Assembly: GCA_006384855.1 (NCBI GenBank)
Contig: VCJN01000908.1
Location: 62,001-126,000, forward strand
Direction: 5' to 3'
Length of the DNA: 64,000 nucleotides
Source: Tetraselmis striata
Lineage: Eukaryota; Chlorophyta; Chlorodendrophyceae; Chlorodendrales; Chlorodendraceae
Made by a program: the position numbers and the translations under genes. Below are positions 17,334 to 49,067 of this stretch, one piece after another; positions within the stretch are counted from its first letter, which is position 1, and each line of letters begins with the position of its first letter. The notes beneath the pieces were generated by a model. It was not told the origin of the DNA. It ran no database searches and saw nothing but the letters and a program-made list of their open reading frames with translations.

Positions 17334-19526
17334 CTACTTCAAACCCTTGTACTTGCGGTACTTCAGAGCCTGATTGGTCATCATCCTGGGCATGAAGGTC
17401 GCCATCATCCAGCCAACCAGGAATCCCGGGATAAACTTGCTGCCCATTAAGTGGGTACCTACAATGACGGCGCAGGGCGCACAGTGCCACACACAAAGGG
17501 CTCAACATTGAGTAGGAGGCTGTGCATCAGTGAAGTGATTCGTCAACATAATACCCCCTCCCCTTGCGCAGACTTTCCCACTTACTTGTGTACAGAACCT
17601 TGTTGGGGTCTGTGGGGTGGGCTTGCACCACGCCGTTGCCGAGGCCCTGCTTCGCCGAGGACAGGGTATCCGTCTCGATGTCCCAGTCCAAGTACATGTA
17701 CGACATCTCGCCCTTTTTTGGGTGGTCCCTGGGGGAAAGCGAGGGGAGGGCAAGGGGGGCTCAGTACAGGCTGCCATGGACAGCAGCAGCTGGAGCTGCA
17801 CAGGCGCTACTGGCCAGCGCGGCCTCACCTTGTGATTAGGAGTCGTGAATGCTGCACACGAGGGGCAACCAGCGGGACCTGGCCGCAATTCAGGGTGGGA
17901 GGCGAACAGGTCAGCGGCACTTTGCCCATCTTCCTGCCTGCTGGCAGCAGACAAGCTGGGCGCCGTATTGAACGTGTTGGCAATGGGCGCTGACCTTGAA
18001 GCAAATCTTCACAATTTTGTCGTCTTCTCCGTTCATCTCCTTCACCACCTCGCAATCTGTCCCGCAGACCAGCTCAGCCATAATGCCCAGTGCCTATCCG
18101 TCATACGGTGAGTGTAAGCGTAGGCAGGCGGTGCACCTGTCATGAAGTCGTCCCAGTTGTTCCTCTCGTGAGTGAAGTTGCACACCATGTCCGCCGCACT
18201 GTCCAGGTCCATGTCCAGGGTCACCGTCGCCCGCAGAAACTCGGGGCTGCCTGCCACGCGCAACCGCCGAGACTCAGTGGGCTGGCCGTCCGCAGCTGGG
18301 ATGGCGTGGGAGGGGTGAGGTAGACGAGGGTCTACCTGGCTTGCTCCGCCGCTCCACCTTGACCCACGGCTTGTCTACCACCGTCTTCCAGTGGGTGGCG
18401 TCCGAGGTGTCCACCAGCTCCGCGCAAAACTCGCGCGCCTCTTGGATAATCTAGCAGCCAGCGGTGCAGCGCGGCTCAGCGACAGGTGTGGGCGGAAAAA
18501 AAGAGGAGGGGCAGGGGCAGGGCTGCGAAGGGAGGGGCAGCCGGAAGCCTCCCACCTTCTCCTGCTCGGGGGAGAAGGCGGTGCCCTGTTCTGCGGGCTC
18601 CAGCGATTGATCGCCGCTGCTGGCTTTGTCCCTTTTAGCCACAAGCATCATGCTCTGGCAACCATGGCGGCAGGAATCAGAGCCGGGGATGATAATGCCA
18701 CATGAGAGCCGCATCCCCACACAAAACACGGACAGGCATGCCGGCGCTGCACACCTTGAAGTGCTCGAAATCCCCAAAGCCCTCCAGGAAGTCAATCGTG
18801 GCTGTGAGATATATTCCAGCCGGAGCGATGCTCTTAGCTATCAGTGTGGGCGGCAGATATCAAACGCACAATAGCTGCCCCCCCCCCCCCCCCCCCCCAA
18901 CGCGGCCCCGCTCGCCAGGCAGACGAGCCGATACGCAGCCAGGGATGCGTGCCTGGCCAGATGGGGAGAGGGGGGGGGGGGGGGGGGGGGGGGGGCTTAC
19001 ACGCCGCGCCATCGACGCCCTCTCCATTATTCATATATTCCGCCAGCGCTTCCATGAACGCCTCCATATCAAACTCGGGCCCCAGATTGGCTGAGAGCTC
19101 GGTCGCAATGTGCTCCTCCACGACGCTGACATACTCCTCGTGAATTGGCTGTGGGTGGGCAAGCAGCAAGCATGGCTCATTGCCCGCCACGGCTCCATCT
19201 AATACGAAATAGATCGATCTCAATCCGTTAGCCCCAAACCCCGTAGATATCATCCCATCAGGAAAATCCCCAACGGATTCACTGGCGTGCTCGCTCTTCC
19301 TCCCAATCGTTGCGGTCGCTCATAACATGCGACTAACTGGATCGCTGCATAAAATGTCACATCGGAAGTCGGAAGTCACCGTGTACTCCAGCCGGTTCTC
19401 CAGGTCGTCCTGAAACACGTCGCAGTGCTTGTCCACGAAGTCCTTGCAGGTGGTCACGAAGGCGGGCTGGTTCACCACCTCGTCGATCACCTTCAGCACG
19501 GCGGGCACGTCCACCACCGGCGCCAT
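17334..19526 (-). CDS. BART-domain / START-domain fusion protein
   Basis: Ten exons (minus): 19526-19380, 19148-19001, 18801-18755, 18654-18556, 18450-18336, 18295-18137, about 18072-17995, 17929-17829, 17728-17586, 17458-17334; about 395 residues. Exons 1-4 encode a BART fold of the ARL2BP/CFAP36 type: DKHCDVFQDDLENRLEYT joins in phase to PIHEEYVSVVEEHI, then IDFLEGFGDFEHFK and SMMLVAKRDK. BART domains bind ARL2/ARL3 GTPases. Exon 5 continues in phase into a START lipid-binding domain: HWKTVVDKPWVKVERRSKP, a WDD block, DHPKKGEMSYMYLDWD, and a C-terminal GSKFIPGFLVGWMMATFMP hydrophobic helix. Most splice phases agree. The exon 6/7 junction is one base out for the START-like reading (EVVKEMNGEDDKIVKICFK). 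A canonical alternative frame exists there but loses the similarity. The start could lie further upstream. Inferred role: lipid transfer or sensing under small-GTPase control. Confidence 0.75.
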
Positions 19527-22600: not shown

Positions 22601-22639
22601 ATTCTGGCCTCTAACTAAGGATTACTCGTGCAGAATGCT

Positions 22640-29439: not shown

Positions 29440-32400
29440 ATGGCATCGAGCGGCGATGAGGCCTCAGGCTCGGAGCACGCCCTGCGGCAGCTGGCAACCA
29501 ACCACCTGTCGCTGGGGCAATTTGAGCTGGGGCTGGCGCTCCTGCGTCGCCTGGGCGCGGGTGGGGAGGCGCTGCTGCGTGCCCTGGGCGCTGAGGGCCC
29601 GCCGGCGGGGTGGCTGCCCTCGCCGGGCGCGCCATCCAGCGCCCACATGCGCTGGATGGCAGCCGCTGCCGCCGCGGATATAGAGGGCGGCGCACCAGGG
29701 GCGGCGAGGGTGGCAGAGCTGGCGCTGCTGCTAGAGCTGGTGGGGCGGCCGGACGCCAGCGAGGCGGGCCCCACGCCGCCGGACGTGGAGAGCCGGCTGG
29801 GGACGCCGCTGGGTTGCAGCCCCTGGCTGGAGCGGGGGGAGCCCGGGGAGAACGAGGCAAGTGATTTGCGCGTGCTGCTGGCACGCCTGCTCTGGGCGCC
29901 ATTGGCGAGCATTGGCGAAGGTCAACTGCCGCGGCCACCGCCACCGCCACTGCCAGTGCGCTGGGCAGAGGCAACACGATCCAACGCGGACGGATGGGAG
30001 CTGGTGGCAGCGCCCCGTGGGCAGACAAACGCACTAGCGGTGGACCTCAGTGCGCTGGGTGAGGCAGCAGACGCTCTTCGGCGGCTCGCAGAGCGGCAGC
30101 CGGCACTGGTGGCGGCGTTGGTTGGCGCTGCGGGGGAGCTGGCGGACAAGGCGGGCGGCGAGTGGAGCCAGCGCACGGCTGCGCTAGCCGCGGCAACGGA
30201 GGACGGGCATCTGGCGCTGCTGGGCCGCTGGCTGGACCGGCGCGACGGGGGGGAGGGGTTGGAAGGGGCGCCCGCGCTGCACTGCAGTGCGTGCTTCCGT
30301 CTTGCGCACCTCACTGGCGCGGGCGGCACGCCTCGCGACCGCTATGGCGCGCTCTTCCGCCGCCTGCTTCGGGTGCACCCTCCCCAGCCCACCTTTAGAC
30401 CCTGTCTCCCCTTCCTCCCTCCCCGCTCGTCCAACCTCCTCTAGAGCGGCGATAACTAAAATGGAGGAAAGGATGAACGGAACACATTAATGCATTTTGC
30501 TGAACAGCGACGAGTTCATCCATCGATTTTCTGGGGCGCACCAGGACTGGGCAGGACCCTTTGCCACATGCGTCCATCCTTCAGGGGAGGGGGGGGGGGG
30601 GGCACCAATCAGCGCCCCTCTCCGCTATGTATGCCTGATCGCGCCTGTCTGGCTGGCCTGGCTTGCAGGGGCAGACGGCGCGCGCACGCATGCAGGCGCT
30701 GCAGGCTGCGCTGGCGATTGGCAGCTCGGAGCTGGCGGGACTGATGGAGAAGTGCCTGCGCGAGGAGGAGGCGCAGCAGGAGCTGGAGGTGCCAGCTGCC
30801 ATGGTCGCGTGCCTCCGGCACTGGGAGGGTAGCATGTCGCCCGGCGCTACGCCCCCGGTGCCACCGCCGCTTCTGAGCTTCGCCCGGGCACGGGGCATCC
30901 ATGTGCTGCAGGTGCCCCCCCCAACCACCCTTCCCGCCTTTGCATGCGGTCTGACGTCCTTCTTGGAGAGACGCACCGTCTCGTCATTGCTTAACAGTAT
31001 CCCTGCCGCACTGGGGACTGACAGCCGGCTGCATTGCGTCCCTCGATGTTGCGGCTTGATAGGGTGCATTGACGTCAGCGCTGAGCTTCGTATCAGAGGG
31101 CGACGTAGGCAGCGCAGAGAAACTGCTGCAAAGCTTCCCGCCGCTCAGGCCGCTACTGCTGGCAATGAGCTGGGACGCGCCTGCAACGCCGGCCTGGGAC
31201 GTTGGTACGCCTGGTGTTGCATTGGCTGCGCGCCACGCTGTGGCGCGGGCGCTGTGGCAGGAGGGCGTTGAGCCGAACAGCGAGGCACCGCCTGGATGCT
31301 GCGTCAGCGGTATGTGCCGCCAGATCGCATACCGCCTAGAGGTAGCGGACCTGGTGGAGGCGCATCTGCAGGTTATTCCTTGCCCCCTCACCCTAACCCA
31401 CTAGTGTTCCATTTGAGAAACACTCCATCTAAATACAATCTTCTGAAAACCAGCGTCGATCTCCTCCTCATGCTCATCCTCATCCTCTCCTCATAACACT
31501 ATAATGTGCACGTGTATGTGCGTGAGCAGGAAAATCCAGCGGCAGCGACAGGTCTGCCGTGTGCGGAAGGCACCCCGTCAGAGCAAGTCCCCCAGGCCGC
31601 TGCCGCCTTGGCTGTGCAACTGCTGGCGGAGCAGTCGCCCGCAAGCGTGCTCGGAGTATTTCTGCAGGGCGCCAGCCTGCAGACGCTGTTGGAGTACGCG
31701 GAGAAGCAGGTCCGGAGCACCCTAGCCGATTCATAGACGTCACCGCTGTGTGTGTGTGGGTGTGTGTGTGGCTGCCGATTCGCAATCTATGCCTCGAGAT
31801 GCTGCAGTGCGACTACCGGCTATCACTGCTAAATGTGACCTCCGTGCACATGTCGGATCAATACTATATTTGATTTTGCTAGTAAAATGCTCGATTGTTC
31901 TCCTTACTCCCAGGCCTGTAACCCCCCCCCCCCACCCCCACCCCCCCCTTACCACCACCACTGTATACAGCTATTCGTGACAGTATATTGTCAGGCCTCG
32001 GCGTTTGAATAGAAGTTGAAAAAAGTAGCTTCACGGCTCTGACTGTGAGCGCAGCTGACATGACTGCCGGCGCCATGTGTACGCAGCCCACCGACAATGC
32101 GGAGGAGGCCGCCCGGCGCCAGCACGACCTCCGCCTTCTTCACACCTGCCTAGCGGTTGCCACGCTGGCGCAACTGCTGTCCCTCATGGCGCTCTTCGAT
32201 CAGCTGGAGGACGGCAGGGCCGGTGAGAGCGCGCCGACGTTAGACGAGTTGCAGGTGAGCAGAGCCTGGTAGCTGGTCTATCGGTCGGGGGACCCTGCGC
32301 ACACCATCCTAGATCTGAACTGCTGCGACCCTTCCATACTCCAACAGCTGGTCCTTCGTGCAAGACTGTCTGCGGCCGCTAAAGGCGCATCATATCGTTT

Positions 32401-35400
32401 TAGCGTTGCATCACCAAGACAAGCTCCGCATTCTGCGCGGCAGCCTGAGATCCCTAGATTGGCGCTCTGCAGGCCTGCGTGCTCGCGGAGCTGGCGGCGC
32501 TCCAGTCCCATCTAGGCTCAGTGGCAGACGGCAGTGCGTCGGGCTACTTCGCACGCTGTTGGCTACTGAGTGTCCTCCGCGCAGCGCTGCTCATGGATGG
32601 GCGCCCGGCAGGGTCGCCGTTGTCAGCCGCCGCGCAGTGCCGCCCTCCAGCAGGCGGCTCTGCTGCCTCGACGGATGCCCAGCGCGCTGCTGTGGATGAG
32701 GACGGAGGTCTCGCAGCGCACTGCGTGCGTGCGCTGCTGAGCTCGCTGGAGAGTCCCGCGGTGCCCAGCTGCCACGGCAACGTGCCCCTGGACGATGACG
32801 CGCGGCGGCTGGTGCAAGAGGTGAGTGGAGTTATGGGCGCGTTCCGCAGCTGCCCTCCCCGCGTGGCTCGTCCCCGGATGTGCATACGAGCAGCAGGTGC
32901 TACTCACCTGACATCATGGTGATCCTCCCCCTCCCCCATGTGCCCTCCCTGTTGGCACTACCCCTGCCAGGCGTCCGGGGCTCACGTGGCAGAAGCCACG
33001 AGGTTCAGCATTGAGGCCCAGTGGCGGCTTTCCCTGTTGCGGCGCATGTCGCCGCCAGGTGGGGCCGCCGCCTGGCGATGGGCGGATGCGCTGGCGCTGC
33101 TGCAGGCGTCGCCGCTCACGGTGCTCTACATGTGCAAGCAGGTTGTGACCCCCCCCCCCCCCCCCCAGCGCGCGCCCTACCCCGCCCCTTCTCCGCCCCC
33201 TCTGAAGGCCCCTGTCTATGTGTAAGGAGCTCCAGACGGAGAGATAGGGGGGGGGGGGGGGGGGAGCGGTACCTGCGCTGGTGCAGCCAGGTGCTGCCTG
33301 TCTATTGGCACAGCGACCTTGCTGATCTGTAAGCGGCCGCAGAGGAACGACTACGAGCTGGGCCGCGAGGCGGTGAAGCACTTTGATCTGCCGGAGAGCG
33401 AGTTCTCGGCGCTCAAGCTGGCCGAGTGGATGGACACAACCGTGGGCTCCCTTCCTCCCTTGCCCCCCCCCCCCCCCCCCTTTATCGACGTTGTGGTGGG
33501 ATGACCCACCCCAGAAGGGTGATTACATTACAAGCGTACCCATGCAGCTCCTTCAGGAGGGGCTGTTGCCCATGGCCTGACTGACGCAGCAACCTGGCGG
33601 CGGGGCGCGGCGCAGGCTATCACTTCGCAGCTGGACCAGATGGTCAGCGGGCTCAGGCGGCAGGAGGCGGAGGCGGACGGCAGGAGCCCAAAGGTTGCCA
33701 CGCTGGACTTCAGTTCGTTGACAGTGAAACTGCCCGAGGTGCTCCTCCCGCCTCCTTGCAAACCCCCTAGAACCCCCTACTACACAAGAAAACATTTTCG
33801 GTGATCCATTGGCATTCACTGATGTACGCGTTGTATGGCACTGCCGCTAGGAGCAAAAGGCGATGCTCTGCATTGACGTGGCGGTGGCGGTGGCCACCAG
33901 TCCGGCCACCAGCGAACGGCTGCTGCAGCATGCAAAGGAGCTGCTTGCCCGTGTTGATAGGTGGGCAACACCCCGCAGAGGGCTGCGAGCAAGGAGGGGT
34001 GGGGGTGGGGGTTGGGGTGGGGGGGGGGGCATGTGCTTGCTGGGAGAGAGGCTAGATGGGGAATGTTTGTCGCCTAGATACCGCAGGCCCACAAGGGCTC
34101 AAATTATGCTGTGCCACGTGGCTCGCATGTGGTGTTGGCAGCGGCCCGGAGGACGGCAGCGCTGCCGGGAGAGTGAGCCCCCAGATGCGCAAGGCCATGG
34201 CTTCCACGCTGGCGGCCGCGCAGGCGCTGGCGGGTGCCAGAGGGCGGCGGCGGGCGCTGAATGCAGAGGTAGCGGGCGTGGACGAGTGGCGCGCCGGCGA
34301 GGTGGAGGCCTCGGGCTCCATGTCACCCGGCGGCAGCCTGGGGCTTGGCCCCTGGGGCAAGCGCATGCGGGCGCTGCGGCTGCTAGCGGAGGCGCAGGCA
34401 AGCTGTTCCGGCCGCCTGGGCGCACCCTGCATGCTCTCAGTTCCCGCTCCGCGTCTGCATGCCCCTGCCGGATGACACAAGCAGCTGTGTGCCTCCAGGC
34501 TGGCATCCGATACGGGCGCCACCAGTTTCTGAGCGGCCTGCTGCACAATTTAGCCCATGCTCTTGCCGATGACGCGGGCAACTCCTCCTCCATCCACCTG
34601 CTGGAGGTTGGTTGCCCCTCTCCCTTTCCCATCCCATCCCGCCCTACTACCATCTTCCACGTAGTGTCGCCGCACACACCGTGCCCTCGCTTTGTTATTG
34701 CCCCTGACTTCTTAAAATGTTTTGAAATGAGGGGTTATTGATTGCCATGAAGGCGGCGCCACATGCGCATTGCAATGGCATGTACTCTCCGTACACCTGA
34801 GAGCACCGCGCCAGTTGATGCCTGGTTCTAACTGCATGTGGGCTGCTTTGCAGGCCTGTGGCTTCAGTGGCGGGCTTGGGGCCGGCAGTAGGGAGGGAAA
34901 GGCTGAGGGCATCTTCGCGTCCCCAAGCATGCAGGCATGTGCTGCATCCGACGTCATGCAGCCATGGCTCCCCAGCAGCACAGCACAGCACACCATACCA
35001 CACCACATCATATCATATCATATCACATCACACCACACCACACCACACCACACCACACCACACCACACCACACCACACCACACCACATCATTTTCGTGCA
35101 CATCAGCTGCTTGCGGCATCATTGGCGGCTGTTAACCTGTCCCACCTGGGATGCAGGTCTTGCAGGAGGCGTCCACCATGCCGGTGAACTACCTCGCATC
35201 CATGATCTCCTACCTCGCTCAGATTGGCGATGAGCTCTCCAGCCTCAATGATGACGGCGCTCCCACGGAGACGCACAACTACTTTGCCCTCATTTGGTTG
35301 ACCCCCGGCCCCCTCTGTGCTCCCCTCCCGTTTCCTTTTATAAGATGTCTTTATACATATCAAGGGAACTCTCTGCCGTGGTGCCAAACCAGCCTCTCAC

Positions 35401-38400
35401 GTTCTCGCACTGTCTGCATCAAACTGCCGGGTGCGCGATCTGCCTATCTGTTTTGTGCAGCCGGTGATGTGTGTACTCCCTGTTTGTGTGCGCGACCCTG
35501 GTCTCTCGCAGTGAAAGCCCAAAGGTGCTCTTGCCGCGCCTGGTCATCCAAGACGGCTGCGCGGAAGTGGCGGTGCGCGTGGCAACCCTGATGGGCACGG
35601 ACGTGCTTCACGAGATCCTGCGCGCCTGCCTCAGCCCGGTCTACCCCCCGGACCAGCAGCCATCAACCAGCGTGAGTCCACTTGCCCTGCCCACTGCGGA
35701 AGCAGACACCTTAACCAGACAAACGACATGTCATGGGCGATGTTGTAATTTGGCGGGTGCGGTTGTGCTGCGATTGAGCTGCTGATGGACCGCCTGTCGC
35801 GCAGGCTCCGCCCTCTCCCGAGCAAGGTCGCGCCTCCCGGGGCATCTCCCCCGCGCTGTCCGGCTCGTCCACCCCCGCGCCTGGCGCCTTTGACCTCAGC
35901 CTCGCCGTGATGCGGCCCCTGGCCGTGCAGTCCACCATCCGCGCCGCCCTCGCCTCCGTCTTCTGGCTGCTGCAGAACCCGGGCCACCTAGTGCGTGCCG
36001 CAACTTCGCCGCCTCCTAGCGTGCCATCCCCTGCCATTGCCCCTCACTGCCTGCCCACTAACCGGCTCACTGTCTCGTACGTTGGGCCCTTGGCGTTTAC
36101 AGTCGCGCCACGACGGTGACGAGCCGGGGGAGGGCGACGACATCGCGGCGTTCGCGCTGGAGGCGTCGGAGCTGCACCGCCCACTGCGCCGCTGGATCGC
36201 GCATCAGCTGCAAGACGCGCGGCGAAGCTCTGCTCCTCTGGCGCAGGAGCCCAACGACGAGACGCCGGGCGGTGCTGCTCCGGATGACTACTTTGCGCTG
36301 GTGCCGCCAGAGTGCCACGACCTGATGGAGGGCGGACACTACGCCGAGGCGCTGGCGGCGGTGGATGCCAGCGGCAGCTACGGGCCGCCGCCGGACGCGA
36401 TGCTGGAAGACATCGTGCTAGGCCTGCTCTTCGGGGCGCGCGTGCCCTCACCGCGCCCCTCCCCCGCCCGTCCAGGCTTCGGCAGCTTCACCACCTCACG
36501 TGGCGACGTCAGCCGAGACGACGCAGCGCTGTCCTGGCAGTGTGTCATGCGCACTGCGGACAAGGCCCGCACGGCCGCGCTCATCTGGCGCTTCATGTTG
36601 CACTGGGAGCTTCAGGTGCGTGCGCAACTGGGAAACATGTTCACCTCGTACGTCTGCAGGGCCTGGCGGGGAAATGGTTTCGCTCCATTCTGGTGGAGTG
36701 CCGCCAAGCACTCTCTGGTCTGCCATCTTATCCGCCAACTACATGCATATGCCAGGACAGCATTGCCATCCTTGGCCCGCAATGGCCCTCTCGCTGCCCT
36801 CCCCATCCGCAAACTGTTGCGACGATTATAGTGGGCACGATGCAGGGTGATTGACGCCGCCATACGCCGCCTTGCCCACACGGCGCTCCTGATTGACGGA
36901 AGCGGATTCCTTGAAAATGTTTGTGGTCGCGATGCGCAGGAGGCCCTGGATGCCGCCCTTTTGTGCGCCGCAGGGCTGCGCGCGCAAGGCAACCCCGGGG
37001 GGGCGGCGGGCACGGTGTCCCCCCCCCCCCTCCCCCCCCACCCCCCCTCTCAGCACTGTCACCACTCTGCTTGGTTCAGCCTCTGCCTGGGTCGCTTGTC
37101 GGAAAGCCCAGAACAGCCTGCATGGATACCTTGCGGTAATGGTTATTGTATCTGACTCCGATGTGCCCGCGCAGTCCAAAATGGAGGCGCTGGCGAGACA
37201 GCTGCAACTGTACTCCCGCATCCTGGCCACTGACGTGGGCGCCGAGTTCGCCTCATGGCAGACGCTGCACACCTCGTTCCAGGACAAGCGCGGCCAGGTT
37301 ACCCCCGTCACCAGCCCCCGTCACCTCCTTTGCTGGACGCAGCTCTGGCCACTCCTTCCCATATGGTTGGCGCTACGCCACCGCTTCAATAGCCCATTGT
37401 TTTGACCTCGTTTTGAGGCGCTGCCTCGCAGGCTGCGACATGCCTGGCACCAATGCCACATCATAACAAAGACCTAGAGGACGCCCCGCTTTCGATGTTG
37501 TCGTTCACCATCTGCCCTGGCCGTGGACTGTGTGGCTGATGTGAGACTGGCCGCGGCGTGATCCGCCCTGGGGCAGGTGATACGGCGGCTGGTGGCCTCT
37601 GGTGCCCCGCAGCTGGCAGTGGACATGGTGGAGCACGTCTCGGACGCCGCAGATCCGCTCACGCCCGCAGTGGCGTACCAGGCGCACGCGGCGCTGGTGG
37701 AGGCGCTGCTGGGCAAGAGCGGCCGCCACATGGCGGCGCTGAAGCACCTTGCCAGCTTGCGCCCCGAGGACATGTTTGAGGCGGCGTTGCGGGTGCTGCG
37801 CTCGCGGGTGCCGCTGCCGCAGGCCAACCTGCTGCTGCAGTTCCTTACGCAGGTGAGCGCTGCCGCAGTGATCCCACCCTCCCTCTGCGCCCGACCTCCC
37901 ATTGCCTCTCCTTGATGTCCCGCAGCTGTCTCTTTGCCTCCCTTCTCCGCCGCGATTAGTATTTATAGCTCGTGCTGTTGCGCTGCATGACTGTCTGCGG
38001 GGCACCTGACCGCCCATCCATACCTGCGGCTGCGCAGCCCACGCGCCTGGCGTCCTTCAGCTCCACGGCGCGCGTCGAAGTGGAGCGCATCAGGCGCGGC
38101 GCGGCGGCGCTGCAGCTGCTGCAGGCGGAGCCCGGCCTGGCGAACTGGGCCTCCCAGCTGCATCACCTGCTGCCCTACCCGGAACTCCTGCTGGAGGCGC
38201 TGATCATGTCCCAGCAGGTGTCCCTACCGCGACGACAACCCTTGAACTCGCAATGTTTGCCCTATCGCCATCGAACCCACAGCGCCTGCGCCCCAATGTA
38301 CATCACAAGTACAGCCATAGGTGTAAGGCGGGTTGTTTCTTGCTATCATATTCATAATTGCAATCACGTCCGTTAGATTCCCGGTGTCTGCATTGTGTCC

Positions 38401-41400
38401 AACCGTTGCGCTTCCACTACACCTACATTTATCAGTATATCTCCCTCTCCCCCTCTCTTGGTCACCGGGATCCTCAGGCCGGAGCTGAGCTGTGTGAGTG
38501 GGTGGGTGCAGGTGAATGCGGCCAAGGCGGTGCTGCAGCGCATCCCAGAGCTGCACGACGACGAGGTGGTGGCCAAGTACGCAGAGCTAGCAGTGGCCAT
38601 CGAGGTTCCGGACCTCAGCGTGGAGGCCGCCCCCGCTGCTCCCCGGCGCGGCAGCACCGGCAATGCCAGCAGCGCACTGCGTAGCGGGGACGTCGTCAGC
38701 CGGCGCTACGCCGTCAACGTGCTGTCCGGCAACCGCGAGTACGACAACCAGCTGCGCGCCGGCCACGTCTTCCGCGCCGCGCCCTGCCCGGCGCTGTTCG
38801 CCTCTGTGGTCGATCTTGCCTCCAGCGCGGCGGCGGCGGCAGGAATGTGCGCCGCCATTGCGGAACGCCTGCTGGTGCGCCTGTTCAGTGAGGACAGCCC
38901 TGCTTCTAATGCCGGCGAGTGGTGCGCCGCGCTCATAAGTGCGCCCCCCGCTCTCCTGCTTCCTTTCCGTCTCCATCCTCTGCTCCCCCCCCCCCCCCCC
39001 TCCCCCCCTCTCCATTTCTCCTCACTTCACTCACCTCTGACATGCCTAGCCGCTTTTGCTGATCGCCATGCCCCTCGTGCGCTTGTTCAGGCGGCAAGTT
39101 GTGGGCTGTCGCGGTGGGACTGCAGGCGGCGGACGTGGCGGGAGCTATCCTGGCAACAGCACAGGAAAAGCTGCAGACGGCATCGCCGGAAGAGGGCGCC
39201 GCCAACGGGCTGGTCGGGAAGGTGGAGGAGATACAGCGGCAGGTGGAGCTGCTGCAGACGCTGCTGGGCCAGGGCGCGGGCTGCGTGCTGGAGGAGCTGG
39301 GCAGCCCGGCGCGGTCGGAGGCGCTGTTGGGCCGGCTGGTGGCTGCGGAGCGGTACGGTCTCGCGGTGTACGCCGCCAAGCGGCTGCGCTTCTCTGTGCC
39401 CACGTACTGGGAAACCTGGGGCTTTGCACTCCTGCGGGTACGAGCCCCCCCCCCCCCCCCCCCCCTCTCTCAAATCCTCAATCCCACCCGCCGTACGGTC
39501 CCGCTTATCACGACTCCACCACCGAGATCGCCACCAGTCACACCCGTACGTTCGCCCAGTCACACGCTAATCCTCCATGTCTAACGATGCCCTGGCGTGG
39601 TTTGTTTCCGTGGCAGTAGGCTGCTCCCCGCCAGCCTGTAGTGGCATTGACACCGGTGCCCAAGTCCATATACAAAAGCTGATTGCGGCTCTGGTTGCTC
39701 CGTGCTGCTTTTGTGGCAGAGTAATCAGCTCCGGCAACTTGCAAAAGACGTGGTTAATTTCTGCCCCCATCCTCCTGTGCGCGGCACGGCCATCGACGCC
39801 ATTGCGGCACCATTCCTCACGCCGCGGCTTGCCTGCGCTCAGGTGGGAGAGTATCAGGAAGCGGAGAACAAGTTCCAGAACGCGCTGCGTCAGCTTCTTG
39901 GCAGTCACGCGGCTGCGGCGGAGGACCGCCCGCTGTCGGCTGCCGGCGGGCAGGGCGCCGGGCAGCGGCAGGCGGAGGCGCGCGATCTGGTGCTGCGGGT
40001 GGTGCACGAGGTGGAGCACGGCGCGCCCGCGGACATCGCTGCTGTCCGGGCTCACGTGCAGGCCATGCTCAACTCCGCCATGGTGCGCGGCCAGCCTGCT
40101 GCCCCCTCTCCCCCCCCCTGCTCCCCATCTCTCGCACCACCATCCAACCATTGATTGCTGCATTCACTGTCACTTCGCAATCATGGCCACATTATTCATG
40201 CAGCGCAATTTTAGTTTCGACTACGACAGCTAGATTTAATCTGCAGCATTTCATGCTTGGCGTGGCAATAAGAAAATTGCACGTCTGCCATGTTCGGGCG
40301 CCTACCAGTCAATCCACCCCTCTCGCCCCCCCACCCACAACCCCACCCGCCCCCGACGCTGCCGGTCGACCAAGAGTTTCCCCCATTGCCACTGACACCC
40401 GGCTCTTGCTCGCTGTCCCACCCCGCGTTCCACCCTCCGCCCCCCCCCCCCCCCCCCCACCCCGCCCCCGCCCAGGCGGATGACGACAAGCCGCTGGATG
40501 AGGCCAGCTTCCTCACCATCCTCAAGCTGCCCACGCAGGCAGCAGCGCCTCGCAGCGCCCCCGGGGCGCGCAGCCCAGGTGCTGCTCTCTCCGCCTTGGC
40601 AATCCCAACACAGACCGCCCTCTCCCTCTCCCTCTGCTGCCCCACGACCACCCATCCCTCCGCACTGGATTAGGGGCAGGACTCCCAGCGCATCGCCCTG
40701 ACTCACACAAGCGACACACCCCCCCCCCCCCGGACAGACCCATGGGCAGCGGGCGCCAAGCTGAGCATGGCGGCGGTGCTGCTCACCCGGCACGCGCCCG
40801 ACGAGCTCCTCCCTTTCCTCTTCCGCCATGGCCGGCTGGCCGCCGCCTGCGAGCACGTGGTGGCCTCCCCCCCATACTGCCAGGTGAACCGCAATCTCCG
40901 CCCCCCCCTGTGTTGCGTTTGCGCCGCCTGTGCGTGCGCAGGCCGGGGCCGCACAGCCAACCTGCAATCCTGGCGAGCTGACACAAGGCCCGTTGCCGCT
41001 CTACCAGGAGAGACTGCCAGCCTCCATCCAGTCCACGGGCCAATCCAAGCTGCACCAGCTCTGCCAGCTCAGCGTGGACTACGTCCAGGTCGGCCCCACC
41101 GTTACCTTGCACTTTTTCTGGGGGTGGGGGGAGGGGGGGGGGGGCACGAGGGTGACGGGTGGCAGGTGACCTAATTGGGGGACGGCACCCGCCAGCGCGC
41201 TAGCAGCCCTCTCCGCGCACTCTCCGTGTGTCTTTAAGCCCCCCCCCCCCCCCCCCCCGCTCTGCTGCGCGTTGCATGCAGGTGCCCGAGATGGTGGAGG
41301 CACTTTCAGGCGCCGGCGAGCGTGGGGCAGCGGCGCTGGCGCATGCGGCGGCGTGGATGGAGGCGCACCGCCACCCGCACCACCTGTGCAGCTGCCAGCT

Positions 41401-42733
41401 GGCGCTGGGGCGCCCCCTGGCGGCCGGCATGACGGCGTGCCTCCTGTTCGGCATGGCCACCACCCTGGACCAGGCATGCTGCCCCCGATCACTCGCCCAC
41501 CGGATTCCGCTCCCCGTGTTTCCCACCTCGAGCTGCCGCCCACAGAGACTGTAGGGACACCCGGCTGTAACGGCCGCTGCCCGGTGTTCCTCAGAGATGC
41601 TGTTGTCGTCATCGAAATGCGCTTGGTTACAGATTCCGCCTTACATCTGCATGGCGACGCGTCAACCTCACACAGTCACCCCAACACGAATCCGTATATC
41701 CCGACCGGACCCGCCCACGGTGCTTGCCAGGTCGAAATGACGAGCAACATGAGTCCTGCTGGGTTACGCCGCCCGGCTTTGACGCCGCGTTACCAATGAC
41801 CGAATCCCAGCACCCCCAGCATTCAACACCCCGTTGCCGTTGCGAGCTCCGCTGCATTTATTCCTTTTTTCCCATATTTTCTTCGAATACGCGGAATGAC
41901 GTGTTGTAGTGGCGGGATATCAAGCTTCGGTATGCATCGGCAGCGTGGCTTTAATTATGCTGCGGATGGGTTGATGTCCGGGCGCCAATTCCAGAGGCCA
42001 GCGGCTACCCGTTCCCCTGACAGTGTAGCTCCTGGCTACCCGTTCCCCCTGCCCGGGCCCGGAACCGACAGGGGCTGCAGCATCTGGAGCACGCGACGGG
42101 CCACTTCAAGGAGGCCCTAGGGCAGCAGGAACAGGGCGCCGCCGCCGCTAGGTGCCTCCCCATCCTCACTCTGGAGGGGATGGCCCATGTGCCCTTGCCG
42201 AGTCATGTCCTCCTGGCTCACCCGTGAGCGGCCATTTGGGGGGGGGGGGAGGACACGCAGACGCTCACTCCGGCTGCCCCCTCCTTCCATCTTCGCGCAG
42301 GGCTGCTCGTCAGCGGGGGGGCGAGGAGGCGGTGCCCTCCCATGCTCATCCCCATCCCCATCCACACGTCCACAGCCACGGCCGCATAGACCCCGCGACC
42401 GCCAGTCAGTCGGACGTGGCGCGACAGCTGGTGCTGACGGGGCTGCAGATTGACGTGGTCAACGCGTTCAAGGAGCAGGAGCTGCAGGTGCGGCGGCGGC
42501 GGCGGCGGCAGATTGGCTTGCAGGGCGCGCGCAGTCGGGGAGGTCCCCCCCCCCCCCCCCCCCTCGGGCCCTGAGCTGAACCCCCGCTCCCCCTGCTTCT
42601 GTGCTGCCAGGCGCAGGTGGGGCGCTTCTGGACCGGCGAGCCGGTTGGGGAGGTGCAGCGGACGCCACGAGAGGTCCGCCTGCCCGGACAACCCGTTTCC
42701 CCTGCGTCCCCATGATCACCCTGTCTGTAGCAG

Positions 42734-42764
<31 letters not shown>

Positions 42765-44850
42765 CCCCTCTGCAACCCCCGACCATGTCACCGTTCTGTT
42801 GGACAGAAGGTGTATGCTGTCTCCCATGATTCCTTGGCTCGGCAACCCCAACCCCGCGACTGTGCTTCCCCGGGGAAGGGGGGAGGCTTGCGACGCTTGC
42901 GCATGTCATGGCCTCATGGATGGGGAGATTGGTTTGCCGCCAGGCACGCGATAGTTGGATAGGCCTGCTGCCGGCGCCCCTGCAGCACCGGGGCGTTGCA
43001 GGCGGCTGTTGATCAGAGAGGGGGGGGCCCTCCATCACGGAGGGGGAGGGTCAGGTCAAAGCTGAATGGGCTGAGGACGCCCATGCTGACCAACCACTCC
43101 TCCCCTCGTCCTCCCAAACTGCTTCGGTGCCGCTGGTGCGCGCAGATCAACCTGTTCTTGGTACCGGGCGAGCGGATGGTGCTGCCGGAGGGTCAGCGGC
43201 TAGAGGAGGAGGCATCGGCCGCGCTGCGCAGGGAGGTGAGCCTCCCCCCCCCCCCCCCCCCCCGGGGACAACAAAGGGAGAGAATGAGAAACACAGGAAA
43301 CCGAACCGGGACCCGCATGCGCCCGTCTGCTCCTGCCTCCTGTTGCGCACGCGGCTGTTGCGCCATTCACGCCCTGGCACCCCGCGCTGAGCGCGCCGCC
43401 CTGGCGCTGCTGCCCCCGATGACGCGCAGCGCGTGGCGGAGGCGCTGCTGGAGATCGACTTCAGCCTGGCGTTCCGGCTGATGCATGACCTGCGGCTGCC
43501 CTTCGAGAAGGTCCCCCCCCCCCTCCCCTCCCTCTCTCGCCCGGCGCCGCATGCCGCAAGGACAGCTAGGGTTGCCGCCACATGCCAGGGTTTTCGAGGA
43601 GGCTGAGGTCGGAGCTGCCCTGCCCTGCCCTGCCCTGCCCTGCCCACCGCCGCCCGCCTGCCCGCCCGCCCGCACATCCACAGGTGTACAGCAAGGTGGC
43701 CAACCGGTTGGCACGAGAGCACCAGCACGACTGGCTGCGCCAGCTGCTGAGCAACCTGCGCACCACCATCAGCGAGCGCGCGGAGAGCGAGGTGACGCCC
43801 GCCCCTCGCCGCCCCCAGGAGAACCCGCCCGTGCCCGGCAAGGAGCGGTCGCAGATGAACCAGCCTCGCCGCGCCCGGGGATCGCCGCTGTTCCCAGGAT
43901 GTATCGCTGTATGCATCACAATCTTGAGAGGTGGCAGCCTAGCAGCACGTCATCGCCAAATCCATAAGAGTTTCAATCAAGCTGCTGTGGGTTTCACGGT
44001 GATGCGGTGTCGCGGCGCCCTTCGCGGAGGGAGGGTATAGCCTGTAGTACAGATGCTGCATTCCAACTTACGCCCTGATGCTGGCAGTGAGTAACCAACC
44101 GGGTTGGAAGCATCATCACTGGCCTTCAATTAGCGTTGCGGAATGCTTTGGCGATTTGCATGTTGACTATAACGGAGCGTCGCCTACCCAGGGGTTTCCG
44201 TGTAAACTGGATCGCTGCTTAAACGGCCGTCGTAGCGATTCTGCAAGCATCAGGGTTTCACTGGTGCCGGTCCTGTCCCGGGGGCGGGAAAACACTTGTG
44301 CGTGTTTCCCGGCTGGCAGTTGACAGGTACCTGTAGTTGTTATGTTGCATGACACCACCCGGGGGGGGGGGGGGGGGGGTGTCTCAGCCGCGCTCCGCAA
44401 TGACTGGCCTGCCGCCTGCCGTGTGGGCCGGTGGCAGCTGCGGGTGGCTCATTGCTGGCGGGTGTCTGCGACTGTGCGCAGGTGGTGATGGCCGCCGTGG
44501 CGGGCTACGCGTCGGTGGGCTGCGTGCGCGAGGGGGAGCGGCTGGTCAAGCGGCTGCCCACCACCGGCGCCAAGGTGCCCCCCCCCCCCTTTGGGAGACA
44601 ACAACCAACAACAGCCCCTAACCGTGACCAACTACCACCGCGATGTCGTTGGGATTGACACACGCGGTGCTGCGCCTCCGCGCAGGTGGCCGGGCTGCTG
44701 CGGCTGAGACTGCTGCAGAAGGCGTTCCAGATGGCGCGTAGCGAGCCCGGCAACCGCGCCGCGATGAGCATGGTCCTGGAGGAGGCCAAGGCGCAGGAGG
44801 ACCTCGGCATGGTCGCCAGCGCGGCGGCGGCACTGGGCAGCCATCGATAG
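29440..44850 (+). CDS. ZFYVE26: Spastizin (ZFYVE26/SPG15)-like protein, plant type
   Basis: About 36 exons; 35 were joined by splice sites and phase. Examples: 29440-30372, 30669-30911, 31063-31371, 32473-32820, 36103-36615, 37577-37852, 38512-38938, 39091-39437, 39843-40082, 41282-41473, 43430-43510, 43684-43791, 44482-44574, 44686-44850. The coding total is roughly 7.3 kb, about 2,400-2,480 residues, close to plant homologues as I recall them. Recognisable blocks: LATNHLSLGQFELGLALLRR at the N terminus, RPQRNDYELGREAVKHFDLP, GTDVLHEILRACLSPVYPP, ERYGLAVYAAKRLRF, LQHLEHATGHFKEALG, LTGLQIDVVNAFKEQE, LEIDFSLAFRLMHDLRLPFE. No FYVE zinc finger is seen. Human spastizin acts with spatacsin and AP-5 in lysosome/autophagosome trafficking. 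The exon near 36660-36718 could not be phased. Introns after 34397 and 41473 use GC donors. Start 29440 was preferred; an in-frame ATG lies at 29395. Confidence 0.85.
34980..35092 (+). repeat. CCACA pentanucleotide microsatellite
   Basis: About 110 bases of CACAC/CCACA units interrupted by ATCAT variants, inside the intron 34607-35156 of the spastizin-like gene. Confidence 0.9.
44140..44300 (+). repeat. Dispersed repeat B, intronic copy
   Basis: Counterpart of 22640-22812 in the same orientation, within the 690-base intron 43792-44481 of the spastizin-like gene. A 19-base G run follows at 44361-44379. Confidence 0.5.
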
Positions 44851-45030: not shown

Positions 45031-45389
45031 ATGAGTTGCGCGGTGATGCGGGGGGAGAGGGGAGGCTGGTTTCTTTCGTTTAAAATAGGATGCCATGGAT
45101 GATGTGCTTGCAGAGCTTGGGGTCAAAAAATAGCTCAGGGAGAGTGGCCGCTGCTGGGATATGTGAGGGATTTGGAGTTTGGTCGCATGCCCCGAGAGAC
45201 TCGCTGCATTCCGCCGCGGCAGCGGGTATGTTGGATGACAGTAATGACAGCATCACACTCGGTACACACCCCTCCACGCGCTTCTATTGCGAGATGTTGC
45301 CGCCGCATGTGGAAAATTGGAGCCGGGCCCCGGGGGCAATACTTCAGGGAGGGCTGTCTTGCCGGGGCGGAGGCGTGCGGCGGCCCGGC

Positions 45390-47795
45390 CTAGGGCTCGT
45401 TGGGGTCGTCCCGCGTAAAGACAAAGAGGTCCCCCTGCCGATGACAGGTGTCAGGAGCAAGTCAGCCCGGCGGGTGTCACAGCGCGATGGTGCCACGCCG
45501 TGAGATGGCGGACGTTGCCATGCGAGGAACACATGCAACATGCACTGGACTCGTTTTATTGTGAAGTGCACTGCACAAATATGTGTGTGTTTCTGTACCA
45601 GCATGCACTGCTGTGTCCATCAGTGCGTACATTCTATGTTGTGTCATCAAATGGCTTAGCAGGGGCCGCTACAGGGGAAAGCATGCACGGTCACGTAAAA
45701 GCAATAAAGGACTTGGGTGAAGAAGGGAGGGGGGGGGGGGGGGGGGGGGGGGGGCGCACGTTGCTGTTGCGCGAAATGCGGGTGTCGGCGTCGAGGTAGG
45801 AGGTGTCTAGCCACGCCTCGCTGGAGGCGCCCATCGCCTGCGCCTCCCACTCCATGGCGGCGCGCCCAGGCGACTGGGGCGGCCTCTTCATCTGGCAGCG
45901 CCCACGGCGGCAGCGGGCAGTGCATTACATGATGCCCAACGTGCTGTTGCAGCTGCGAGGGGGAGCCGTCGATGGGGATCCTCCCTGGCAGGCTGAGACA
46001 TGTGGGCAGCTCACCTTGAAAGGGCCCACCCGGAACTGTTCCGGCTTGACCGCGGCCCGGCTCTCGGACTTGGCGTTGAGGCTGCTGGAGGTGCTGTTGG
46101 TCCACTTGAGGAAGGGCAGCGGCTCGTAATTGACCTCATTGAGCACCTGCTGGGCCGCGGCGGGCAGTGCGGGAACGAGCGCATGCGGGGGGAGGAACAT
46201 GTGTAAATGGTACTCAACGGCGTAAAAGACGGATGCCCAATGAAGCGGACAAGGTAGCATGGACGCGCGCGACAGCAGCGCGACTGGTAGCGCATTGGGC
46301 CGCGGAGGGGTGGACGGGGGGTGCCTTGAGGTTGAAGATGTCGACGGTCTGGTAGATGGGGCCTGAGGGGCGCATGAGGCCGCCGCCCAGCGTTCCCCGG
46401 CATGTGGTGTACTGCAGCTCCCACCGCCCGTTGAGTAGCGGCGAGCGCAGCGGTGCCGGCGTGGGATTGGCCGCCTCCAGGGAGCGTGCCAGCTGCTCGA
46501 TCTTGGTCGAGTCGCGCTGCTCCAGCCACATGGACAGGGCGCGCGTTCACACGTTTCAGGCAGGGCGGCATCAGCTGGGTCAGCGGCAGCGGAATGTATC
46601 TGCATGCGTATGCGTCTGTGTGCATTGCCCCGCACGGCATGTACAGTTCCTGCATTTGATACGCCGTTGCAGCTTTGTGTTTGTGGGCGAGGACAGGTGG
46701 GAAGGGGGCGTGTTCAGCAGTACACATGATGGAGATTAGGACATGCACAACGTGCAAAGCTGCAATGCCATCATGCCATAATAGCATGCGCATGTGTGCA
46801 ATGCCTCCGGGCTATAATGGTGCATTTGCGGTTCACATGCTCGACAGCCCACAGAATCCCTGCGTTTCCCAGTAGTCGGAGATTTACCATGTACGAGTGG
46901 ACATCCTCATGTTACCATTCCCCCTCCGGATAGGAAATGTACACATACGCGGTCGTGGGGATGGAGGCGGCAGGCAGAGGGGGTTGCGCGGGGGAGACGG
47001 GGGGGGGGGGGGGGGGGGGGGGGGGCGTGGGGTTGCACACCTCTGATACGCGCAGCCCACGGTTTTTGCCGGCAATGGCAACCAGCAGCGCGCTCTTGAG
47101 CTCGCCGGGCCCGAGCGGTTTCCCGCCCGTGTTGAACTGCACCACTGGCTTGTACTGATAGTTCACCTGATGGGCAGCGTTTGGCAGTGAGTAGACTGTG
47201 CGTGCAGGCAGGGGAAAGGAGGAGGGGCAGCTTGTAGCCCCACTGGCCGGCTGATTTGGGGATGGCTGAGCACGAGGAGGAGGATGTGCACCCGATATCA
47301 GGGCGGCAGTGCGCCCACCTGGACCTGGCTGTTTGTGATGCTGGCGCCCAGGCGGCTGGTGGCCTCCGCCAGCCCCGCCAGCGGCCCAAACGGCCCAGCA
47401 GTCTCCGCCACCTTGCCGCTGGCCGCTGCCGCTAGCCGGCGGCCCGGGTCCCCTGCCCCGCCACCAGCTGGCACCACCTCCACCGAGCTGCTGCTGGCGG
47501 TTCGCACCACCGTGGCCGCCCCCTCTCCAGCCGCCACCGCCCCCTCACCAGCCTCGCCCTCCGCGGCCGTCTCCCAGCCGCTCTCTGCGGCTGCCTCCAA
47601 TGCCTCTGCTGCCACTTGGCCAGCCTCAGCCGGCAGCCCCGCGCTCACGCCGCGCAGCACCGCGCCAGCCACCTTCCCGGCGTCTGGCCCCGACTGCCCT
47701 GGAGCTGGTGACTCCTGGGCTATGGTCGCTGCCGGTGCATCGGTAGAGGGCGCTGAGCAGACAGGCAGTCGGCAGCAGTCAGCCACAGACGCCAT
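45390..47795 (-). CDS. FBN: Plastid lipid-associated protein (PAP/fibrillin)
   Basis: Exons in minus order: about 47795-47319, 47166-47041, 46519-46325, 46146-46015, 45891-45760, 45434-45390, all phase 0. Domain order matches fibrillins: ELKSALLVAIAGKNRGLRVSE, then SLEAANPTPAP, LLNGRWELQYTT, RPSGPIYQTVD, NEVNYEPLPFLKW, FRVGPFK, and the closing WLDTSYLDADTRISR with GDLFVFTR. Fibrillins coat plastoglobules and thylakoid margins. Residues before the domain are Ala/Glu-rich (about 130), and no clear transit peptide is visible, so a further 5' exon may be missing. The intron after 46325 starts with GC. Introns after 47041 and 45760 carry 26-27-base C tracts on the coding strand close to the donor. 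The next gene (FHA) is upstream on the same strand, about 250 bases away. Confidence 0.8.
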
Positions 47796-47820
47796 GCCAT
47801 GCCGTGCCATGCCCTTCTTG

Positions 47821-47980
47821 TACACGATGATACCATACGTGATATATATATATATGATATGTCATGGTATGGTGTTGTACGGCATGTTATAGCAGGGCAT
47901 AACATGGCATGACTTGATAGGATATACCACGCCATGACACAGCATGACATGATGCAGCATGCCATGCCACACAGACCCAG
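47821..47980. repeat. CATG-rich, AT-core low-complexity spacer
   Basis: Contains an alternating GATATATATATATATGAT core, flanked by imperfectly inverted ACCATACGTGA / TGTCATGGTATGGT words and many CATGAC and CATGCC units. It lies between the FHA and fibrillin genes and could act in 3'-end formation or as promoter sequence. Nothing decisive is seen. Confidence 0.5.
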
Positions 47981-48050
47981 GGACGCGGCGGCAGGCACAA
48001 AAGAGTTCTTGTATTTACTTATTTATTTTAGGCAACATGCGGGCGGGGTC

Positions 48051-49067
48051 CTAGGTACAGCCCGGTGGAGAGGTGAGGGAATCTTTAGGGAAGAGCTTGC
48101 CTGGTCGCTTGCCGGCAAGCACTCCGGACAACGCGCTCAGCAGGCCGCCATCCGTGCCGGCGCCACTGACCTCAAATGCTGCCAGGTGCTCGTCGCCCAA
48201 GATGACGACCTGTTGTTCCGTTGTGAGGCGCATGAGCATGCTGGTACCGCGGATTACTGCGCAGAAGGGGCAGGGAGGCGTCACGTGTGCGCACCTGGCC
48301 ATCGTAAAGCCTGGTCTCCACGCCGCGCCGCAGCTGGCGGCCGTTGACGCGCGTGCCGTTGGTCGAGCCGAGGTCCGTCACGTACAGCCGGCCTTTGGAC
48401 ACCGTCAGCGCTGCGCGGGATTGAGTAGATGGCGCTCAGCCCATGCCTGCCCAGCGATTACGCGGGGTACTCTCTAGGCACGTGGGCCGCTTACCTGCGT
48501 GGGATGCGCTCAAGGACGCCACGTCCAGCTCCAGGTCTGCTTTGCCTCCGCCCCTGCCAGTGCGCCACGTCCAGGTGAGAAATGGATAGTTGGGGGTGTA
48601 AATGGAGAATTGGGAAGCAGGAGACTGCGAGGGTGTGTGTGTTGGGAGGGGAAGGGGGGGGGGGGGGGGGGGGGGGGGGGGACCACGCACTTGCGGCCGA
48701 CCACGGTCCGGCCATCCTCGCTTGACGTTAGGCGTATAGCGGGCGCATGCGAGCACACCCCCTGCCCAAGCGCTTGCAGATGGGATGAAGTGCCGTCCCC
48801 GACGGGTACGAGCTCGAAATGCGCGTCACTGGGGTCGGAACGTACTGCGGCCGGTGTGGGGGGGCGCCGCACCGTTGCGCGCTGCCCCGCCGAGCGGCGG
48901 TGTCGCGGCGGTGAAAAGTTCACCGAAGTCTGCGGCTGCCGGCGCGGGCTGACAACAGCCGTCAGCGGGGCGCAGAGCAGGCGGTGGGTGGCAATTCCTC
49001 TCCGTGTCGCGACGGCCAGACCTGGGGACTGCCATGGCGCTTGCCGAGAGGTTCGTGGGCAAGTCAT
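48051..49067 (-). CDS. FHA-domain protein, probably plastid-targeted
   Basis: Four exons with consistent phases: 49067-48691, 48553-48495, 48410-48295, 48209-48051; 236 residues. The first 70 or so residues are rich in Arg, Ser, Pro and Ala and poor in acidic residues, like a chloroplast transit peptide. The FHA fold follows: HFELVPVGDG, RTVVGRK, ADLELDVASLSASHA, GRLYVTDLGSTNGTRVNGRQ and VVILGDEHLAAFEV. This covers the conserved GR, SxxH and GSTNGT phosphothreonine-binding residues. The tail is short (KLFPKDSLTSPPGCT). FHA domains bind phosphothreonine peptides; the partner is unknown. The first intron opens with GTGCGTGGT and then 28 C on the coding strand. The ATG at 49067 was chosen because the longer frame begins with TTG. 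Confidence 0.8.

What the first reader, a model, noticed from the sequence alone, without database searches (positions are those of the whole stretch)
17334..48691. C tracts start immediately downstream of 5' splice sites in at least eleven introns
On the coding strand, runs of 11-28 C begin within about 25 nt of the donor after exon ends 19001 (minus), 33141, 33441, 37014, 39437, 43235, 43510, 44574, 45760 (minus), 47041 (minus) and 48691 (minus). This holds across four unrelated genes on both strands. Sense-strand G runs also occur in introns (30589, 33247, 34019, 41133, 42238, 44361, and one in the BART-START gene), but none is this close to a donor. A fixed position and strand suggests a role in splicing (C-binding proteins, pairing with G runs, i-motif or R-loop structure) or a mutational process tied to the donor, rather than random slippage.
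Basis: seen in the sequence. Interest (0 to 1): 0.75.

Follow-up and report, generated by a model that had tools for sequence, protein, structure and literature searches.

The report
Cytosine runs mark algal intron starts
In the green alga Tetraselmis striata about one sampled intron in eight begins, right after its start signal, with a run of 10 to 34 cytosines on the RNA-sense strand and hardly ever guanines, which looks like a cytosine version of the pyrimidine tract that helps other organisms' splicing machinery find intron starts.

Summary
All 11 quoted places hold the stated C tract. A self-made gene model of the 11 donors at both settings and 2 more at one; three are supported by transcript proteins of a related Tetraselmis. 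The host is Tetraselmis striata. In 218 modelled introns (window, evenly spaced loci, kinesin loci) runs of at least 10 starting by +25 are C 30, G 2. Interiors are symmetric (C 28, G 36); acceptor ends hold C 9, G 0. C-run density at +3..+18 is 16 times interiors (95% 9-29). Swapping C and G runs leaves 14 of 14 kinesin tract donors called. The tracts sit on a C-dominated pyrimidine tract after the donor (91 of 205 introns, median centre +21), matching in place and size, not in base, the U-rich tracts read by TIA1/Nam8/RBP45 (PMC2766253). Two tract introns tested are single-copy; U1 and U6 carry no matching G run. Best reading: a C-form post-donor splicing element lengthened by G/C slippage. 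Function is inferred: donor strength outside the tract does not differ. The whole-genome count did not complete.

The parts
18970..18995 (-). C26 tract at intron +6 after donor 19001 (BART gene)
   Evidence: donor called; BART Pfam match spans the junction
33149..33166 (+). C18 tract at +8 after donor 33141 (ZFYVE26-like gene)
33463..33480 (+). C18 tract at +22 if the donor is 33441; inside an exon if it is 33495 (unresolved)
   Evidence: model prefers 33495
37019..37030 (+). C12 tract (then T and C8) at +5 after donor 37014
   Evidence: donor called at one of two settings, not
39445..39465 (+). C21 tract at +8 after donor 39437
43244..43263 (+). C20 tract at +9 after donor 43235; the intron body after it is single-copy in the genome search
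   Evidence: single match
43513..43523 (+). C11 tract at +3 after donor 43510 (GTCCCC)
44578..44589 (+). C12 tract at +4 after donor 44574
   Evidence: TPR_ZFYVE26 Pfam match spans this junction
45729..45754 (-). C26 tract at +6 after donor 45760 (FHA-PAP/fibrillin gene)
   Evidence: Tetraselmis transcript proteins continue across the junction
46999..47025 (-). C27 tract at +16 after donor 47041; the intron body after it is single-copy in the genome search
   Evidence: single match
48654..48681 (-). C28 tract at +10 after donor 48691
   Evidence: donor called at one of two settings; transcript proteins continue across the junction
17334..19526 (-). BART-domain gene, 9 exons, 310 aa model
   Evidence: PF11527 E 8e-21
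29440..44850 (+). ZFYVE26-like gene, about 40 exons, 2080 aa model
   Evidence: PF25569 TPR_ZFYVE26 E 6e-9
45390..49035 (-). FHA plus PAP/fibrillin gene, 11 exons, 430 aa model; first exon uncertain and two other junctions slightly off against the transcripts (one residue too many at 46325/46149, six too few at 46015/45873)
   Evidence: PF04755 and PF00498; transcript proteins P0121, P0122
40440..40458 (+). C19 tract just before acceptor 40476: C tracts also occur at intron 3' ends

Best explanation
The tracts are the extreme form of a post-donor pyrimidine tract that in this GC-rich alga is made mostly of C instead of U. Many introns carry a C-rich stretch at about +4 to +40, where in other eukaryotes a TIA1/Nam8/RBP45-type protein binds and steadies U1 at the 5' splice site. 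The alga has very active G/C homopolymer slippage, so such stretches lengthen into pure runs of 10-34 C. Runs of C are kept there because the pre-mRNA tolerates or uses them; runs of G at the same place are removed because they would disturb the donor. Shown: position, strand, recurrence, C-dominated pyrimidine tract, length variability. Inferred: that a protein reads the tract and that it aids splicing.
For: Near the donor C 30: G 2 against interior C 28: G 36 (Fisher P 1.4e-6), so the asymmetry sits at intron ends, including C 9: G 0 at the acceptor side, where a pyrimidine tract is expected. Density of C>=14 run starts: 15.3/kb at +4..+6, 10.7/kb at +7..+9, 0.5/kb beyond +120. Pyrimidine tracts without a C run >=8 still cover 0.12 of introns at +11..+20 against 0.06 for purine tracts; 91 of 205 introns have a pyrimidine tract >=6 starting +3..+30 against 41 with a purine tract; median centre +21, mean length 14.2, 77% C. 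Published post-donor tracts in 22 eukaryotes: about 20-40% of introns, centre in most cases +15 to +25, mean length 10-14 (PMC2766253, section 19 read). Short C runs are also enriched near the donor, and the ratio of long runs (>=14) to seeds (5-7) is 24:27 at +4..+18 against 26:116 for C beyond +40 (Fisher P 1.4e-4). Of six pairs of genome copies, three have a donor tract and in all three both copies keep it, at different lengths.
Against: No sign of compensation: introns with a pyrimidine tract starting +7..+30 match U1 as well as those without (4.00 against 4.02 of 7; p=0.96), and exon-side donor bases do not differ (p=0.90). At +4..+6 tract introns match U1 less (0.83 against 1.16, p=0.02; G at +5 0.52 against 0.71, p=0.04), which is where early tracts overwrite the donor; those starting at +7 or later do not (1.19, n=16). 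The known readers bind U, not C. No reader was sought or identified. Interior tracts are also kept between copies, so keeping is not special to donors. No RNA data were available.
Confidence: 0.5

Rival explanations
1. Tolerated slippage without function: intron starts are C-rich by base composition, slippage lengthens those seeds, and selection only removes G runs near donors; the tract itself does nothing for splicing.
For: C/G tracts >=11 occur at 0.66 per kb with no A/T run >=11 in the 191.5 kb sample; non-tract introns are C-rich at +7..+31 (0.39 C, 0.28 G); donor strength outside the overwritten positions does not differ; lengths vary between copies.
Against: Long runs exceed what the seeds predict: long:seed is 24:27 near donors against 26:116 for interior C. 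Removing G runs alone cannot raise C runs 16-fold above interior density. The C-richness would itself need a cause.
Confidence: 0.33
2. A mutational process tied to the donor: something about transcription or splicing at the 5' splice site creates or lengthens C runs there on the non-template strand.
For: Sharp start at +4..+9 and strict strand choice; long:seed ratio raised at donors.
Against: No known process of this kind comes from any call. It does not explain C 9: G 0 at acceptors or the broader C-rich pyrimidine tract. In C. elegans, which also has G/C tracts, tract location within introns is unbiased (PMC2211496).
Confidence: 0.1
3. The C run base-pairs with a G run, either in U1/U6 snRNA or elsewhere in the intron, to bring the donor into place.
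For: Strand specificity is compatible with RNA pairing; a G run >=10 is somewhat commoner in tract introns (7 of 29 against 23 of 189). Odds raised from 0.03 to 0.04 for this on checking.
Against: U1 (2 of 2 matches read) and U6 (2 of 8 matches read) have canonical 5' end and ACAGAGA region without a G run there. 22 of 29 tract introns have no G run >=6; for G>=6 there is no difference (7 of 29 against 43 of 189), nor in the last 60 nt (2 of 29 against 14 of 189).
Confidence: 0.04
4. Tract introns are recent copies of a mobile intron (introner) that starts with GTG plus C run.
For: A shared start motif is what an introner family would show; some algae have introners (recalled).
Against: Two window tract introns, searched genome-wide, match only themselves. 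Among 29 tract introns compared with all 218 no shared ends appear; the matches listed lie inside introns, mostly long ones. Lengths run from 93 to 2549 nt.
Confidence: 0.02
5. Artefact of gene calling or assembly: donors are placed next to C runs by the model, or C runs are sequencing errors.
For: Donors outside conserved domains rest on a home-made model; a few of its introns are wrong (in L021 and L037 the skipped stretch reads as the kinesin P-loop, seen by eye).
Against: Swapping C and G runs recalls 14 of 14 kinesin tract donors and randomising them recalls 12-13 of 14; 9 of 9 spliced kinesins submitted, of 22 loci then held, match the motor domain (in L021 only from residue 101); three window donors are supported by transcript proteins; strand choice cannot come from sequencing error (inference).
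Confidence: 0.02

Closest known systems
Post-5'-splice-site polypyrimidine (U-rich) tracts bound by TIA1/TIAR, yeast Nam8, plant RBP45/UBP1 (PMC2766253; PMC9813592)
   Same: Pyrimidine tract just after the donor, centre about +21, in a similar share of introns, sense strand.
   Different: 77% C instead of U; part of them pure C runs of 10-34; no inverse relation to donor strength; no reader known.
[quoted passage not shown]
   Same: G/C runs far above chance, 18-32 nt, rare in exons (4 of 396 there), common in introns; G on the non-coding strand preferred in genes (84 against 47 there).
   Different: In C. elegans location within introns is unbiased and there are 396 tracts >=18 in 100 Mb; here 72 tracts >=18 in 191.5 kb (summed), and 30 of 67 intronic sense C runs >=10 start by +25.
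G-quadruplex motifs near splice junctions (PMC9065059)
   Same: Homopolymer-rich element near splice sites with strand preference.
   Different: That abstract reports G4 motifs enriched about 3-fold, more so on the non-template strand (start of abstract seen in the listing). Here G runs are nearly absent near donors and C runs take the place.
Introner elements of algae (recalled)
   Same: Would give many introns the same start.
   Different: The two tract introns searched are single-copy and the 29 compared are unlike each other at their ends.

Membership tests
Post-donor polypyrimidine tract read by TIA1/Nam8/RBP45 | Pyrimidine tracts enriched within about 20 nt after the donor | tested here: met
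   91 of 205 introns have a pyrimidine tract against 41 with a purine tract; coverage 0.25-0.26 at +11..+20, 0.06 in interiors
Post-donor polypyrimidine tract read by TIA1/Nam8/RBP45 | Centre +15 to +25, mean length 10-14 (PMC2766253) | tested here: met
   median centre +21.0, mean length 14.2 (a simpler definition of tract than in the paper)
Post-donor polypyrimidine tract read by TIA1/Nam8/RBP45 | U-rich | tested here: not met
   C fraction 0.77, and 0.70 in tracts under 14 nt
Post-donor polypyrimidine tract read by TIA1/Nam8/RBP45 | Inverse relation to donor strength in most metazoans | tested here: not met
   U1 match 4.00 against 4.02, p=0.96
Post-donor polypyrimidine tract read by TIA1/Nam8/RBP45 | Bound by a TIA1/Nam8-type protein that contacts U1C and promotes splicing | not testable with these tools
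   needs binding and splicing assays; homologs of the readers were not searched for
Caenorhabditis-type G/C tracts | G/C homopolymers over-represented | tested here: met
   127 C/G runs >=11 and no A/T run >=11 in the 191.5 kb sample
Caenorhabditis-type G/C tracts | Unbiased location within introns | tested here: not met
   density at +3..+18 16 times interior, 95% interval 9-29
Introner elements | Many near-identical copies, shared ends | tested here: not met
   2 of 29 tract introns searched genome-wide, one match each; 29 compared among 218
snRNA-paired donor extension | G run in U1 5' end or next to U6 ACAGAGA | tested here: not met
   (2 of 2 U1 matches and 2 of 8 U6 matches read)

The most novel reading that the evidence does not exclude
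T. striata has replaced the U-rich post-donor enhancer by a C-specific one: a poly(C)-binding protein (for example a KH-domain protein) recruits U1 to donors marked by C tracts, so that the 5' splice site is in part defined by a length-variable C homopolymer. Allelic tract length would then tune splicing of roughly one intron in eight, making splicing efficiency a slippage-driven, fast-evolving trait.
Probability: 0.2. Interest if true: 0.82.

Novelty: new variant of a known kind. Interest (0 to 1): 0.6.

Why it matters
If the tracts act in splicing, a homopolymer that slips from copy to copy is part of donor definition in about one sampled intron in eight (thousands genome-wide if the sampled share holds, which is inference). 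That is a natural length series for testing how post-donor pyrimidine tracts work and whether C can stand in for U. If they do not act, they show that selection on pre-mRNA can sort slippage products by strand and position, and they warn that gene finders and assemblies of such genomes face homopolymers at splice sites. Nine literature searches in the held library (listed 15 of 34, 11 of 11, 12 of 9054, 1 of 1, 0 of 0, 8 of 21, 12 of 14, 10 of 25, 10 of 69) showed, in the titles and abstract starts listed, no paper describing C homopolymers at donors. Most subscription journals are not held.

Tried and rejected
Gene finding: the first self-trained model overpredicted on both strands and was dropped; a model seeded with window genes, later also kinesins, replaced it. 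A few of its introns are wrong (L021, L037: the skipped stretch reads as the kinesin P-loop); the wrong introns noticed carry no donor tract.

GT position upstream of all 127 C runs in the evenly spaced sample shows only a weak rise at offsets 5-7 (10 each against about 6), as most runs there are not at donors.

Homolog search with the ZFYVE26-like protein found nothing at E 1e-5, so transcript support exists only for the FHA-PAP/fibrillin gene.

Whole-genome motif counts (AGGT followed within about 20 nt by a C or G run) would have been the direct test and did not complete (C pattern; G pattern).

A third gene family (dynein, 57 matches) could not be fetched, so the sets outside the window are kinesins plus evenly spaced loci.

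Considered and rejected: introners, snRNA pairing, pairing with intronic G runs, i-motif or nucleosome effects (no strand choice), assembly error.

Rows dropped before counts: six loci that are second copies of others (L038, L043, L045, L047, L049, L050);'s main row, 2 of 97 introns whose weaker exon scored 2 or less, exons scoring 6 or less or outscored on the other strand, and introns of 3000 nt or more (introns then came from the window and 15 of the 20 sample loci), introns under 80 nt for the pyrimidine-tract part (205 of 218 kept). One dropped copy, L050, holds a modelled intron beginning GTC then G9.
Full report
What the window is. It lies in a 224 Mb, 2903-contig genome. A cation exchanger at 54.9-56.1 kb is 100% identical over all 390 residues to EukProt entry jgi/Tetstr1 TSEL_010398, so the organism is the green alga Tetraselmis striata (the expansion of 'Tetstr1' is mine).

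The observation. All eleven places exist: runs of 11-28 C begin +3 to +22 after the quoted donors. A gene finder written for this task, in which homopolymer runs of 6 or more score zero and donor weights favour G at +5 and disfavour C at +3, of 11 donors at both settings and two more (48691, 37014) at one; 33441 is not called. Three genes are involved: BART (PF11527, E 8e-21), ZFYVE26-like (PF25569, E 6e-9) and FHA-PAP/fibrillin (PF04755 E 3e-32, PF00498 E 2e-14). For the last, two transcript proteins align without a break across the donors 48691, 47041 and 45760: P0122 (MMETSP0804, taxid 1074897, T. astigmatica) and P0121 (organism not shown; identical to P0122 but for a 44-aa insert). Two other junctions of my model, not tract donors, are slightly off against them.

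Is it more than chance, and more than this window? I used 20 places taken at even steps through the contig list (191.5 kb; 15 of them gave introns) and 24 distinct kinesin loci found with PF00225, where most exons are anchored by homology; 9 of 9 spliced kinesins submitted, of 22 loci then held, match the motor domain, though in L021 only from residue 101. Donor-proximal C runs of at least 10 occur in 14 of 97 kinesin, 9 of 73 sample and 6 of 48 window introns; G runs in 1, 1 and 0. Under random placement within the same introns the kinesin expectation is 3.0 (observed 13 of 26 runs >=10, in the 95 introns with both exons scoring above 2), the sample 2.1 (9 of 25 runs >=11) and the window 1.5 (6 of 14 runs >=11). 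Pooled, runs >=10 starting by +25 are C 30, G 2; interiors C 28, G 36; ending in the last 25 nt C 9, G 0. The density ratio of C runs at +3..+18 to interiors is 16.4, bootstrap over loci 9.1-29.5. The peak is sharp: C>=14 starts at 15.3/kb for +4..+6, 10.7/kb for +7..+9, 3.4-3.7/kb for +10..+18, none at +19..+25, 0.5/kb beyond +120.

Control for the gene model. After swapping every C and G run of 8 or more in the kinesin loci, the model recalls 14 of 14 tract donors and 80 of 83 others, and the donor-side runs are then G 17, C 2; with runs randomised it recalls 12-13 of 14 tract donors and 79-80 of 83 others. The strand choice is therefore in the sequence, not in the method. The control was not run on the window or the evenly spaced sample.

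What surrounds the tracts. Even introns without a tract are C-rich after the donor (0.39 C, 0.28 G at +7..+31). Pyrimidine tracts of 6 or more starting at +3..+30 occur in 91 of 205 introns, purine tracts in 41; median centre +21, mean length 14.2, C fraction 0.77. Short C seeds are enriched near donors, and long runs are enriched further (24 long to 27 seeds, against 26 to 116 for interior C and 25 to 66 for interior G). Tracts are length-unstable: at the same donor two genome copies have 18/26, 20/22 and 19/21 C, and in L035/L050 the start moved from +17 to +8 with loss of the interruption. Interior tracts vary likewise (G24/G32, C22/C36).

What it is not. Two tract introns searched genome-wide match only themselves and the 29 tract introns share no ends, so they do not look like introners. 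U1 (2 matches) and U6 (2 of 8 read) are canonical near their donor-pairing parts and carry no G run there. Intronic G runs >=6 are as common in tract introns as in others (7 of 29, 43 of 189); G>=10 is somewhat commoner (7 of 29, 23 of 189), but not at the 3' end (G>=6 in the last 60 nt: 2 of 29, 14 of 189).

Mechanism. The strand choice and the restriction to intron ends point to the RNA, not the DNA. The position and size match the post-donor pyrimidine tracts described in almost all of 22 eukaryotes (PMC2766253; section 19 read whole and passages seen) and the U-rich elements read by plant RBP45d (PMC9813592; passages including part of the abstract seen). In this alga the base is mostly C. 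I therefore propose a C-form of that element, lengthened by the alga's G/C slippage and kept because C is useful or harmless there while G is not. Results against a strong enhancer role: introns with a post-donor pyrimidine tract do not have weaker donors (p=0.96); tract introns match U1 less only at +4..+6 (p=0.02), where early tracts overwrite the donor; and no reader was sought or identified. Tolerated slippage on C-rich seeds is the main rival; a donor-linked mutational process is possible.

Comparison with other G/C tracts. In C. elegans G/C tracts of 18 or more number 396 in 100 Mb, their location within introns is unbiased, and G tracts lie on the non-coding strand 84 times against 47 (PMC2211496, abstract and sections 5 and 10 read). 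Tetraselmis has far more (72 of at least 18 in 191.5 kb, summed), no orientation bias in intron interiors, and a strong one at donors.

Limits. No RNA data; the sample is 218 modelled introns, some of them wrong; the whole-genome count did not complete; no second species could be examined at DNA level.

Noticed in passing
window 49644-53428 (-): A retroelement with reverse transcriptase, RNase H and a weak tyrosine-recombinase SAM-like match (DIRS-like by recall) lies beside the FHA-PAP gene.
   Followed up: no
window 9895-10371 (+) and 11389-11865 (-): Two nearly identical open frames in inverted orientation, each near a short minisatellite (9692-9775, 11956-12084).
   Followed up: no
L001-L020: 127 C/G runs of 11 or more in 191.5 kb but no A or T run of 11 or more; the window itself has one T13 at 62189-62201. 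Homopolymer growth here is almost confined to G:C.
   Followed up: partly
L035/L050, L036/L038, L039/L043, L044/L045, L046/L047, L048/L049: Six kinesin loci are present in two copies; 16 of 17 compared introns differ by 0-12% (the other, 26%, had no true counterpart called), as if haplotypes were kept apart or recent duplicates exist.
   Followed up: partly
P0122 against P0121: The T. astigmatica transcript protein P0122 keeps a 44-aa in-frame insert, probably a retained intron, at about the position of the T. striata intron after 47319; P0121 lacks it.
   Followed up: no
window 33343-33495 (+) and 24529-25018 (+): The gene model puts two C runs inside exons as polyproline; both look like mis-called splice sites. 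One search counts 3 C runs >=10 in 35.4 kb of predicted exons.
   Followed up: partly
pooled introns, last 25 nt: C runs also gather at acceptors (C 9, G 0 ending within 25 nt), a weaker version of the donor pattern.
   Followed up: partly
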